The notes under the pieces were generated by a model, which saw only the letters and a list, made by a program, of their open reading frames with translations, was not told the DNA's origin and did no database searches. The position numbers and the translations under genes were made by a program. Source: Corallium rubrum (Eukaryota > Cnidaria > Anthozoa > Scleralcyonacea > Coralliidae). From it: a stretch of 64,000 nt of DNA. Numbering within the stretch: position 1 is the stretch's first letter; each line of letters starts with the position of its first letter. Shown here one piece after another: positions 45,501 through 57,500 of this stretch. The DNA lies in NCBI GenBank assembly GCA_964035015.1, contig OZ036007.1, positions 1,770,291-1,834,290 on the forward strand, given 5' to 3'.

Positions 45501-48500
45501 CAACTACGGTTGTTTTCGTTTGACCACTATAGTTTCCCCCACAAGTACTTTACCCTAGTTAACGCTCATTATTTACTCTGTCTAACAGACTATTTTACTG
45601 TCTAACACCGGACTATTTTACTTTAACACCAGACTATTTACTGTCTAAAACCGGACTGTTTTACTAACACCAGACTATTTTACTATGTCTAACATCAGAC
45701 TACTTTACTATGGCGAACACCAGACTATTTTACTCTAACACCAGACTATTTTACTATGTCTAACACCAAACTATTTAACTATGGCGAACACCAGACTATT
45801 TTACTCTAACACCAGACTATTTTACTCTAACACCAGACTATTTTACTATGTCTAACACCAAACTATTTAACTATGGTGAACACCAGACTATTTTACTATG
45901 TCACCAGACTATTTTGCTATGTCTAACACCAGACTATTTTACCATGTTTAACACCAGACTATTTTACTATGTCTAACACCAGACTATTTTACTATGTCTA
46001 ACACCAGACTATTTTACTATGTCTAACACCAGACTATTTTACCATGTTTAACACAAGACTATTTTACTATGTCTAACACCAGACTATTTTACTATGTCTA
46101 ACACCAGACTATTTTACTATGTCCAACACCAGACTATTTTACTGTGTCTAACACCGAACGGATATTTTACTCTGTCTATAACCCTCACAAAACCTTAGTT
46201 AACCTTCGCAACACCCTACCAGTTGGCCCTCAAACGGTCAGGGTAGACCATGTTGGTAAAAATGAACTTATCACACAGAGCTTGAACGCGACGAAGCCTA
46301 CCTTCGAATAGGGAGTCTACAGTTGTGATTTCTTCGGTTTCGCGAGTTGTTTCTTGAACGAAAGAGCGAAAGAGGTGAACGTCATTGCAATGAAACACAA
46401 CATTGCAACAGGATTGCACCAAACTAACAGAAAAACATGCAACTAATCTAAACTATCAATGATTTAACAGATATCGGTCTTTTCGTTTTGCATGGTGATG
46501 AGTAATTCACAAATTTTTATTTTAAAGTGTATATGAAATGAAAATTAAATTTGTCTAATTTGGGAGAACTCCTTGATGTTGTAAAGTAACATCTTCTACA
46601 GTTTTTCCATATCTTACTTCGTTCTTGAGATCTTGCTATTTGTTTGATATGTAAATGATCACACTGCATACGTCACATTGTATAATGAGTTACTGCATGA
46701 GAAGTCGTGCATATCATTGATATTAATCTGTTAAATCGCTTGAACCCGTGTTTGTTTAAAGTCATGAGACAAATACACCTACACGACCAGTTTCGTGTGA
46801 ATTTGTCAATAACTTCAACAATATTTGTAATTTTCCAACAACTCATTATACAATGTGACGTATGCAGTGTGATAATTTACATATCAAACAAATAGTAATA
46901 ACTCAAGAATGAAGTAAGATATGGAAAAACTGTAGAAGATGGTACTTTACAATATCAAGAGTTCTTTCAAATTTGAGAAACTTAATTTTCATTTCATATA
47001 CACTTTAAGGTAAGCACCATGTATATAATTTTCTGCGCTGAGCTTTTGACCTGTGAGCTCAGGACTTCATCAGAGCTAATGACTGACTACATTAGACGTC
47101 AGTTTTTAACGTCTTTGACATTTTAACTATAGTAGCTTCAGTGAACTAGAGCTCCAGTTACATTCCCATAATCCATGCAGGGTTTAATGAACCTGTTCAC
47201 CTACACAGTGCTATCTTGAATTCGCAATGATATGGATTATAGTTTACCCAGGGTAACCAGCGCGCAATGCAAAAGATGATTGCTTAAGTCATGTGGAGAC
47301 ACAATGCGGTAAAATGAATGCTTACAACACTTTTGTGGCAACAATGTTTAAATAAAATCCCCGTGTGTTCTCTGGTTGTTCAGCTTCCGCAAAATCAACA
47401 TCAGTTTTACCAAATTAGTTTTACGAACTATATATAGTTCTGTTTGGTATCAAGGGAGGAGAACCATTGGGTTATCGGTATCCAAAAATACCAAAATACT
47501 GTCATGTTATCCTCATAAATAGGATCGTTGCAACTTCATAATTTTGAAACTAATGCCAGCAATGCAACCCTTTAATCACGATTTCTTTTTTCGACCAGCT
47601 TTCTTACCTTTCGTAATTTTATTTATCGTAGTAGCGACAGAAACAGTTGAATTTACATCAGTTGTTGCAGCTACATGATAAAATATATGTTACACCGGGT
47701 ACTCTCTATTGACGAATAAAATTGAAGATGACTGCTTAAGTGTGGAGACACAACACGGTAAAATTTATCTTTATAAACATTTTTGTAGCAACGAACAATG
47801 TTTAAATCAGACAAGTTCTCTGGTTTTCCCGCAAAATCACTACAAATCAGTTTCTTAATTAAACAAGACGCCTGCTCAGGCGTTCACGCGGGCTACTGAT
47901 TCTGCAATTGGCGTGGCCTTCGCACATCTAGAAAACCTGCGGATGTGCGCGTATTAAACTTACGACAGTGTGTATTCGAACGAGGTACTGATGTCAACAC
48001 GGTAATACGGCATATTTTCGCGTCTGTAATAAATTCGGTCCATTCTGGCTTCATGGACAAACCTTGTCAGCAATATTATTGATCAACTACTGATGAATTC
48101 ACCAATACCGTCGGAAAAATCCATCAAAGGCAAAGCTGTCGAAAAGAAAGAACTCGAAAAATCGAAAATCGAGCCACGGCAACATGTCTTACAGTTTCGC
48201 AAGGCCTGACGGGATGATGCAATAATGCCATTTTGTGGAACCCCAAAAAAATAAAAAAGCCGAAACCTAGACTCGGCCTACCACAGGTAGCCCGAGTAAT
48301 TAGTTTTACGAACTATAGTTGTTTGTTATATCAAGGGGTGAGGGCCATTGGGTTATTATCAAAAAATGCCAAAATACTCTCAATAAATAAGATCGTTGAA
48401 ACTTTATAATTTTGAAACTAATACCAGCAAAGCAATCCTTTAATCGCGATTTATTTTTTCGACCAGCTTTCTTACCTTTCGTAATTTTATTTGTCGTAGT

Positions 48501-54500: not shown

Positions 54501-57500
54501 GAAAAAATTAGCCAATCAGATCAAAATAACAATAACAAATCAATGAGATGCGAAAGTCATTTGCTATTCCCGCCGTCGATGAGCAAAAAAAAGAGGGTGT
54601 GTAAAAAGTATGAGCGAGAGTAAAAAAAATAGATAATTATTTAAGTGAAAACACTGTCTATGTCCGCCCCTACTCATCGATGGTGGGAATAGCAAATGTC
54701 TTTCGCATCTCATTATTGATTTGTTATTTTTATCTGATTGGTTTATTTTTGGTCACATGATTATCTATCTTATATATAAGTTTTTTTTACACTCTTTACG
54801 TTTCTCTCTGACGAAGGGCCTTGGCTCGAAACGTTAGTTTCCTTCAGTGCTGTAATAGTTACATATTTTTTGTAACTAGTTAAGTTACAACATCAGGAAA
54901 GTAACTAGTTACCGATACAAGTTACAATGAAAAAAAAGTTACAATGAAAAAAAAGTGTTTAAAAAACTAGTTACAGTTGCAAAGTTACTTTAAAAATGTT
55001 GCAACTAGTTACATTATATTGAAAGTTACACCTATTTTTTCGTTCGGCTATTAAAATCGAGAAAGCATGTAAACTAAGCTGGACGTGTTTACGCAAATTC
55101 GACAATGATGATAGGCTTTAACTTTCGGTGAACAAAGTAAACAACTTAGCTTTACGGTTGGTCCCGCTACTGATTTGAACTGGAACATCATTTCCTAGCG
55201 CGGCCACGGATTTGATACTGGCTGTGCTGAAGACATCTTGATGCGCTACTACGTGTGTAATCGCTCCGGTCGATGAATGAATGAATGAATAAATGCATGC
55301 ACGTGTATTAATATCGCATTTGCATATAGATTGTCCAGAATGCATTGCAGCGGCGTGTGACGAAGATTCGAGCCTGAATACGACGTTGAAAGACGACTCG
55401 GCGAGGTTGGGAGTATTATGGATATCGCAAAAAGTAACGGCGCTCTCGACGGCAGATGTAACTAGTTATCGTTACTTTTTATTCCTATTTTTTGTAACTA
55501 GTTACAGTTACAGTTACCTTCTGAAAAAAGTAACTAGTTACCGGTAAAGTTACTCAAAAAAGTAACGATTACATGTAACTAGTTACTTCTAACGAAGTTA
55601 CTCACATGCAGCACTGGTCTCCTTACTATATTTCGATTGTTGTTTCAACACTGCCTACGCAGCACGCTACTTCTATTTCAATGTTTAGTAAATATATAGC
55701 AGTGAGACTATTATTTGTATTTAGTTAGCTTATCTTAGTGAGCAACTTATTGAGAACAGTGATGTCCATACTCGTTGTAATCGTTATAGGCTAGTAACAT
55801 TAATTTTATTTGTCCTCGTATTAATTGCGAAACGGAAGGTGGTAGGACGTTCATTGTTATTAGATATGGCATTGTTGTGTTTGTAAATCAGCTTACCTTG
55901 TGTAGTCGTAAACATAGTGGTACTCATGGTAGTGTTAATATCTGGTTATAAAAACAGGCAGCAAGTATTAGGAGTAAGATAAAAAAAACCCTGCACAAAG
56001 TTGTTGTCAAGCTTCAGGGAGTCTCAGGATTTTAGCAATCTTCTGGATAAACTAATCACAACTAAAACCTCTACCCTAGTCAGAAATCTGGTTTACCGCG
56101 AAAAGACTGTGGTCGAAGTTCACTCAAAGGGACCCGTCCAGCTTGCTTGCTTAGTACAATTTGCCTATCTGTGATTGGTTGACAATTTCCCAAAGGTATT
56201 CGTCCACCAATCACATCTCGCGTTGGTCGTGGCAGTAGCCAATCAGATGTAATCTCTAGTGTCACGCTTATGGTTGGTGATATGATAACAGTGAAAGCAT
56301 CACAACGTACGAAAAGACTTAGGATTAAGATTACGATAGTAATTCAGATTATAGTTAGATTAAGCGAGTTTAGGATTATAGTCAGATGATTAGAGTTATT
56401 AAATAAATAAATAAATAAAATAAATAAATAAATTGTTAAGCTAAATTAAATGAGTATGATTAATTAGTTAACCAACCAACCAGCCAACCAATTAAGTAAA
56501 CAAATAGCCAATCAATTAACTAACTAATTACCCAGCCAACCAACTAACCGGTCAAGCAACCAACCAGTTAACCAGCCAAACAGCCAGCCAGCCAGCCAGC
56601 CAGCCACTAACCCACCCAACCACTAACCCACCCAACCACTAACCCATCCAACCAACCCATCCAACCAAGCAAGCAAGCAACCAATCTACCTCCTCCTACC
56701 TGGACAATCACATCCATTGCCACTATCAATGCTTCCTCCATCCCCATCGGCATAACTAGGGCAAGATTCTTTGCAGTCTGGACAACTGTAACCAAGGTTA
56801 CAATGACAATGACCTAGATTGTTGCAAATCTGGGAACACGAACAGCACAATTAGTACCACTAAAGATGACAGCTGATTACCACAACAACGAAACTAAATT
56901 TTACAATCAATAAATAATGACAATGGCCTAGATTGTTGCAAATCTGGGAACACGAACAACACAATTAGTACCATCGAGAATGACAGTTGACTACCACAAC
57001 AACGAAACCAAATTTTACAATCAGCAAGACGCCTAGGCCAGGCGTTCACCCGGGCTACCGCGGTAAATAATCCGCATCATAAGTCAATGAATCATCTACT
57101 GGCAAAGTGCGGAGGAATTGCAGCAATCACAAAATGGAAGTCTGAATCGAAGGCCTCTCTCCTCGCGCTGAGGCTCTATACCACGCTAGCAAAGGTGGGA
57201 GTGGGCCGAGGAAGATCAGATCGAAGGCTGAATGTGGTGCATACTTCACAAAATATTGAACATATTTACGATCAAGACAGTTGTCAGCCACATCTGATCA
57301 CTGTTACTGTCGTGGCAATAGAAGCGTTCCTAAAATAATTGTGCAGTTGTATTCCTCACGTTGAACAATTCATTTGATGAAAATATTGCTAAACTTCCTG
57401 TTTTGAATTTTGTTTTGAATTTGATTGGTGTTTGGCAAATAATCCATTTTCTTATTGGTTATTCAATAACCAGGAACCAATCAAATTCAAAACAGGAAGT

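What the first reader, a model, noticed from the sequence alone, without database searches (positions are those of the whole stretch)
46302..55941. Expandable array of phase 1-1 mini-exons building a mucin-like stalk in an ADAM gene
Eight near-identical 63-nt exons plus three related small ones (45, 54, 51 nt) lie in tandem between the EGF-like and transmembrane exons. Every one has a T-rich acceptor, a GT donor and phase 1 at both ends, so any number can be included or skipped without frame change. Each 63-nt exon adds 21 residues, about nine Ser/Thr and one NST sequon. Full inclusion gives roughly 200 residues of glycosylatable stalk, far longer than usual ADAM stalks. This would tune the distance of the protease from the membrane and could differ between alleles or isoforms.
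Basis: partly seen in the sequence, partly recalled or inferred. Interest (0 to 1): 0.9.

Follow-up and report, generated by a model that had tools for sequence, protein, structure and literature searches.

The report
Duplicated mini-exons lengthening an ADAM stalk
A gene for a membrane-anchored protease in a soft-coral-like animal carries twelve tiny, frame-neutral exons, eight of them near-identical copies, that could add up to about 228 residues of stalk between the enzyme and the cell membrane; the parts are there in the DNA, but whether cells use the eight copies, or vary how many they use, is not yet shown.

Summary
On the minus strand lie eight 63-nt exons (87-100% identical to the first), plus 45-, 54- and 51-nt ones, all GT-AG and phase 1-1. 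The gene is an ADAM: its exons upstream match Reprolysin and Disintegrin above Pfam cut-offs and carry HELGHNFGLNHD; best matches are octocoral ADAMs. A spliced database sequence (P0005, 300 of 302 residues identical) confirms 51-30-TM-tail splicing. No transcript with a 63-nt exon was found, and P0005 reads into the intron before the 51-nt exon instead of into the last copy. A genome search with the 63-nt exon gave eight matches, all here. The copies have no stop, indel or broken splice site, but they diverge about as fast as their introns (1 of 9 usable pairs differs at p<0.05), so selection is not shown. Full inclusion adds 228 residues; two octocoral relatives have stalks of 85 and 43. It works like titin's PEVK exon array; I found no report of this in an ADAM. 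Regulated inclusion and copy-number variation are untested.

The parts
57968..58048 (-). exon, end of cysteine-rich region ([27 protein letters not shown]), phase 0-0
   Evidence: tblastn with P0001/P0003, 67-69% identity
56700..56829 (-). EGF-like exon, phase 0-1
   Evidence: 63-69% identity to P0001-P0003
55897..55941 (-). 45-nt mini-exon, [15 protein letters not shown], phase 1-1; predicted
54111..54164 (-). 54-nt mini-exon, [18 protein letters not shown], phase 1-1; diverged relative of the 63-nt family; predicted
52818..52880 (-). 63-nt mini-exon copy 1; predicted
51723..51785 (-). 63-nt mini-exon copy 2; predicted
50406..50468 (-). 63-nt mini-exon copy 3; predicted
49517..49579 (-). 63-nt mini-exon copy 4; predicted
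49167..49229 (-). 63-nt mini-exon copy 5; predicted
48818..48880 (-). 63-nt mini-exon copy 6; predicted
48476..48538 (-). 63-nt mini-exon copy 7; predicted
47608..47670 (-). 63-nt mini-exon copy 8; predicted
46302..46352 (-). 51-nt mini-exon, [17 protein letters not shown], phase 1-1
   Evidence: its donor is used in P0005, where its 5' side runs on into intron sequence, so its acceptor is not confirmed
43269..43298 (-).
   Evidence: found through P0005; genomic position and splice sites
40886..41015 (-). transmembrane exon, phase 1-2
   Evidence: in P0005
40421..40587 (-). cytoplasmic exon 1, phase 2-1
   Evidence: in P0005
39107..39591 (-). last coding exon, proline-rich cytoplasmic tail, stop
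   Evidence: in P0005
50491..54020 (.). minisatellite rows (25-, 50- and 76-bp units) in the introns around copies 1-3; the span reported includes copies 1 and 2
48464..49625 (.). tandem array of about 350-bp exon-plus-intron units, 3.3 copies (63-nt copies 4-7)

Best explanation
This is an ADAM metalloprotease gene (ADAM9/12-like, octocoral) in which a Thr-rich stalk mini-exon has been duplicated in tandem together with its introns, by at least two kinds of unit (about 1.1-1.3 kb and about 345 bp), to eight near-identical copies. Because each is phase 1-1 with no stop, every gain, loss, inclusion or skipping keeps the frame. The most likely use is that several or all copies are spliced into at least some mRNAs, giving an extended, probably glycosylated, disordered stalk of up to 228 residues that holds the protease-disintegrin head further from the membrane than in ordinary ADAMs. 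Shown: anatomy, phases, splice signals, ADAM identity, joining of the 51-nt, 30-nt, TM and tail exons, duplication by unit. Inferred: inclusion of the 45-, 54- and 63-nt exons, glycosylation, spacer function. Untested: variable inclusion and copy-number variation.
For: 12 of 12 mini-exons GT-AG and phase 1-1. 8 of 8 63-nt copies share the donor AAG|GTAAGA (8 of 9 consensus positions), have no stop, no indel and keep NST, while their introns show gaps in each of 9 usable pairs (1 to 12 gap openings). P0005 shows that two mini-exons of the same stalk (51 and 30 nt) are spliced. Relatives have Ser/Thr-rich stalks at the same place, 85 (P0001) and 43 (P0002) residues, and P0003 has a 14-residue motif twice (by eye). 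ADAM head: Reprolysin 75.6 bits, Disintegrin 75 bits, active-site HELGHNFGLNHD.
Against: No sequence with a 63-nt exon was found. P0005 runs from intron into the 51-nt exon, not from copy 8. Substitutions give little sign of constraint: exon divergence is below intron divergence in 8 of 9 usable pairs but mostly by little, and only copies 3-8 reach p<0.05 (3/63 against 51/384; p=0.034 for substitutions, 0.011 with gaps; pairs not independent, no correction made). Synonymous against non-synonymous: 6 and 8 changes, p 0.19-0.22. Chance of no stop in 14 neutral changes is 0.74-0.80, so open frames alone prove little.
Confidence: 0.55

Rival explanations
1. All mini-exons are included constitutively: a long stalk of fixed length in each allele, with no regulated splicing. 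(A narrower form of the best explanation, so the odds overlap.)
For: The eight donors are identical and near consensus and the acceptors alike, so nothing in the local sites ranks one copy above another.
Against: P0005 shows at least one RNA form that does not join copy 8 to the 51-nt exon, though this may be unspliced or alternatively started RNA.
Confidence: 0.3
2. The 63-nt copies are mostly unused: multiplied with their introns and seldom spliced in; the normal protein has a short stalk made of the 51- and 30-nt exons.
For: Only the 51- and 30-nt exons have transcript support; exon and intron divergence are alike in most usable pairs; codon test not significant; the neighbouring paralogue seems to do without such exons.
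Against: No stop, indel or splice-site loss in 8 of 8 copies at up to 14% divergence, while the introns have gained gaps.
Confidence: 0.32
3. The stretch before the 51-nt exon is an alternative first exon, so that the gene also makes a short membrane stub of stalk, TM and tail without the protease. (Compatible with the others.)
For: P0005 continues 15 codons, open in frame, into the intron 5' of the 51-nt exon.
Against: Intron retention or pre-mRNA gives the same contig; the first residue M of P0005 is a GTG codon in the window, not ATG.
Confidence: 0.15

Closest known systems
Titin PEVK exon region
   Same: Short, highly repetitive exons in a spacer region, many splice isoforms, tandem exon duplication as a way the array grows (PMC6469411, passages)
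   Different: Muscle spring rich in Pro-Glu-Val-Lys; about 100 exons; no protease, no extracellular stalk
Schistosoma micro-exon genes (MEGs)
   Same: Short symmetric exons, secreted or membrane-anchored products, some predicted heavily O-glycosylated, variation by splicing (PMC5825161, passages)
   Different: MEGs have about 80% of the coding region in 6-36 bp symmetric exons; here 30-63 nt exons form only the stalk of an otherwise ordinary ADAM
ADAM9/12-like metalloproteases of octocorals (Dendronephthya P0001, Paramuricea clavata P0003)
   Same: Domain order, EGF-like exon 63-69% identical, Ser/Thr-rich stalk in the same place
   Different: Stalk 85 residues in P0001, 43 in the unnamed P0002; neither these nor P0003 has the 21-residue repeat (by eye). 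P0003 ends without a TM segment and has a 14-residue motif twice
Mucin-like stalk VNTRs such as platelet GPIb-alpha
   Same: Copy number of a Ser/Thr-rich repeat sets stalk length (recalled; only a search listing was seen)
   Different: There the repeat lies within one exon (recalled); here each repeat is its own exon, open to splicing

Membership tests
ADAM metalloprotease | M12B (reprolysin) catalytic domain with HExGHxxGxxHD | tested here: met
   Exons upstream of the window on the same strand: PF01421 75.6 bits (cut-off 20.8) on joined tblastn pieces, HELGHNFGLNHD. That they belong to one transcript with the window's exons is inferred from order and strand
ADAM metalloprotease | Disintegrin domain | tested here: met
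   PF00200 75 bits (cut-off 35.1) on four joined tblastn pieces
ADAM metalloprotease | ADAM cysteine-rich domain | tested here: inconclusive
   Only its last exon was found; part of the region could not be read
ADAM metalloprotease | EGF-like module, TM segment, cytoplasmic tail | tested here: met
   EGF-like exon matches octocoral ADAMs, though Pfam EGF models stay below cut-off and a PDB search gave reelin, not ADAM, as best match; TM and proline-rich tail read directly and present in P0005
Tandem-duplicated symmetric exon array (works like titin PEVK) | Several near-identical exons with like phase at both ends, duplicated with their introns | tested here: met
Tandem-duplicated symmetric exon array (works like titin PEVK) | Differential inclusion in mRNA | not testable with these tools
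   No RNA reads on hand; protein searches found no sequence with a 63-nt exon
Schistosoma-type micro-exon gene | About 80% of coding region in symmetric exons of 6-36 bp | tested here: not met
   Mini-exons total 684 nt of the 1677 nt of the 3' part modelled here, only one is under 37 nt, and the ADAM head adds more ordinary exons

The most novel reading that the evidence does not exclude
The gene is a length-tunable protease tether: cells choose how many 21-residue glycosylated segments to splice in (stalk from almost none to 228 residues), and individuals differ in the number of 63-nt exons because the exon-plus-intron units keep recombining.
Probability: 0.25. Interest if true: 0.7.

Novelty: new variant of a known kind. 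Interest (0 to 1): 0.43.

Why it matters
ADAMs act on substrates near the membrane (general knowledge), so stalk length should bear on which substrates they reach. A gene in which stalk length is encoded as a count of interchangeable exons would allow that to be tested by counting exons per transcript, and would be an extracellular case of the PEVK-like principle of setting a spacer's length by exon number.

Tried and rejected
Chance or a dispersed repeat: rejected. A pseudogene: rejected for the gene as a whole (active-site motif, open tail, spliced P0005). Assembly artefact: not excluded, but the copies differ and lie in unequal units; no match on another contig.

Exon against intron divergence: three attempts. 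In one search (15 pairs of copies 3-8) 8 rows are unusable, either because neighbouring copies share one physical intron or because the exon fell out of the chain; of the other 7 one (copies 3-8) has p<0.05 and one (5-7) has a more diverged exon. In one search MAFFT gave low p-values, but copy 7's insert and the unmatched end of copy 8's intron were misaligned; I set all's intron figures aside. Copies 1-2 were left out of these tests because minisatellite fills their introns.

One search read the 30-nt exon one base off; its sites and peptide are taken, which brings Ser/Thr from 84 to 85 of 228. A PDB search with the 114-residue part without mini-exons gave 13 rows, best reelin (E 0.00093), no ADAM. 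Pfam on P0005 and on the last tail exon found no family.

Literature, listings only unless said: 15 of 293 listed; 10 of 26; 1 of 1, unrelated; 10 of 7,025; 2 of 2; 6 of 9; 5 of 17; 8 of 19. By title and abstract start, none of the listed papers describes mini-exon arrays in an ADAM stalk. I read passages of PMC5825161 and PMC6469411, nothing more.
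Full report
What is there. On the minus strand the window holds the 3' part of a multi-exon gene. Joining the predicted exons gives one open frame of 548 residues to a stop: the end of a cysteine-rich region (58048-57968), an EGF-like exon (56829-56700), eleven mini-exons, a transmembrane exon (41015-40886) and two tail exons (40587-40421, 39591-39107). The mini-exons are 45, 54, eight times 63, and 51 nt, each GT-AG and phase 1-1.

What gene it is. A protein search with the first 75 residues of the model found four proteins among six candidates: a Dendronephthya 'disintegrin and metalloproteinase domain-containing protein 9-like isoform X2' (70% identity; the species name is cut off in the listing), an unnamed one (67%), a Paramuricea clavata ADAM12 (67%) and a hedgehog ADAM20-like (44%). 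The window lies at G000:C28:1770291-1834290 of a 474-Mb assembly in 312 contigs. tblastn of P0001 and P0003 on 244 kb around it places prodomain, catalytic, disintegrin and EGF-like exons in order on the minus strand from C28:1890830 down into the window. The catalytic exon reads HELGHNFGLNHD. Joined pieces of these exons score 75.6 bits for Reprolysin and 75 bits for Disintegrin, above the curated cut-offs. Of the ADAM cysteine-rich domain only the last exon was found. Within the window alone the ADAM signal is weak: Pfam EGF models stay below cut-off and the best PDB match is reelin. That the host is an octocoral is inferred from the best matches.

Transcript evidence. P0005 is a 302-residue protein from a 1063-nt contig (source 'lgn', which I take from memory to be assemblies of public sequencing runs). 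In one search only the 8000 candidates sharing most words were scored. P0005 equals the 51-nt, 30-nt, TM and both tail exons joined, with 300 of 302 residues identical; the two differences lie in its first 14 residues, in the 15 that continue into the intron 5' of the 51-nt exon. As it lacks four introns, I take it to come from spliced RNA. This confirms the 3' gene model, the 30-nt exon and the donor of the 51-nt exon. It does not show a 63-nt exon; its 5' part is retained intron, pre-mRNA or an alternative start. Short-read assemblies tend to break at identical repeats, so absence is weak evidence.

The array. Copies 1-3 are 98-100% alike and spaced 1095 and 1317 bp, with minisatellite in their introns; copies 4-7 are spaced 350, 349 and 342 bp. 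Whole exon-plus-intron stretches repeat, so the array grew by duplication of units, most simply by unequal crossing-over (inference). The 54-nt exon is a diverged relative: its best stretch matches copies 1 and 3 at 83% over 42 columns. A genome search with copy 1 returned eight matches, all here (counts are lower bounds by the tool's word).

Is it under constraint? None of 8 copies has a stop, an indel or a lost splice site, and 8 of 8 keep NST. Their introns have gap openings in each of the 9 usable pairs among copies 3-8 (1 to 12 per 219-384 aligned bases). Substitutions tell less: exon divergence is lower than intron divergence in 8 of 9 pairs, but mostly by little (copies 3-4: 0.127 against 0.123; 3-5: 0.111, 0.119; 3-6: 0.079, 0.123; 3-7: 0.079, 0.080; 4-5: 0.016, 0.016; 4-6: 0.048, 0.065; 5-6: 0.032, 0.058; 7-8: 0.095, 0.117), and only copies 3-8 stand out (0.048 against 0.133; p=0.034, or 0.011 with gaps). 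The pairs are not independent and no correction was made. An earlier MAFFT comparison looked stronger but was misaligned. The codon test is not significant (6 synonymous, 8 non-synonymous, p 0.19-0.22), and 14 neutral changes would leave no stop with probability 0.74-0.80. So constraint on the 63-nt exons is possible, not shown.

The stalk. Each 63-nt exon codes 21 residues, [21 protein letters not shown] or close, with 8 Ser/Thr (7 in copy 7). With all twelve mini-exons the added stretch is 228 residues with 85 Ser/Thr (37%; 30-nt exon read as) and 9 NxS/T sequons. From the conserved GGS(I/V)DSG to near the TM segment this makes about 237 residues, against 9 with all skipped, 85 in P0001, 43 in P0002 and 8 in the mammalian P0004. 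A same-strand tandem paralogue downstream has an EGF-like exon (C28:1697176-1697050) with a phase-1 donor and a TM exon near C28:1694150 with a matching acceptor, which would join with a stalk of about 13 residues (read by eye, not RNA-checked), and blastn found no 63-nt relative in the 244 kb outside the array. P0003 has a 14-residue motif twice in its stalk (by eye), a hint that stalk duplication also happened in another octocoral; its exon structure is unknown to me.

How it most likely works. The mini-exons make an extended, disordered, probably glycosylated spacer between the ADAM head and the membrane. That such stretches are glycosylated and stretched out is general knowledge, not tested here. 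Whether copies are included, whether inclusion is regulated, and whether the number varies between animals is open; the anatomy permits each without frame change.

Compared with what is known. As a principle this is closest to the titin PEVK region, with short repetitive exons, many isoforms and tandem exon duplication (PMC6469411, passages), and to Schistosoma micro-exon genes with short symmetric exons (PMC5825161, passages); it is not a MEG. In the listings I saw no report of such an array in an ADAM stalk. I therefore call it a new variant of a known kind.

Noticed in passing
43269-43298 (-): Twelfth, 30-nt phase 1-1 mini-exon [10 protein letters not shown] between the 51-nt exon and the TM exon, spliced in P0005.
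   Followed up: yes
46353-46398 (-): P0005 reads intron sequence just 5' of the 51-nt exon in open frame: retained intron, pre-mRNA or an alternative first exon that would give a protease-less stub.
   Followed up: partly
G000:C28 from about 1723488 down to at least 1697050 (-), outside the window: Same-strand tandem ADAM paralogue, apparently with a conventional short stalk and a proline-rich tail.
   Followed up: partly
56802-57023: The start of the EGF-like exon with its acceptor is duplicated in tandem (114 bp, 1.9 copies, 91% matches); the upstream copy soon runs into a stop and looks like a decoy (by eye).
   Followed up: no
11275-18800 and 19347-26746: Tandem segmental duplication of about 7.5 kb, two aligned pieces 96.7% and 97.9% identical.
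   Followed up: no
10055-10414 (-): Homeodomain-coding stretch (PF00046, 78.1 bits).
   Followed up: no
43612-45107: 16-bp minisatellite, 93.5 copies, 93% matches, in the intron between the 51-nt and 30-nt exons.
   Followed up: no
47671-48475: The intron after copy 7 carries an insert absent from the other copies compared; by eye it shares a CCGAG(T/C)CTAGGTTTCGGC piece with a stretch near 57.9 kb, so perhaps a mobile element.
   Followed up: no
5523-6739: Short-unit repeat open in three minus-strand frames ([15 protein letters not shown] translations), probably non-coding.
   Followed up: no
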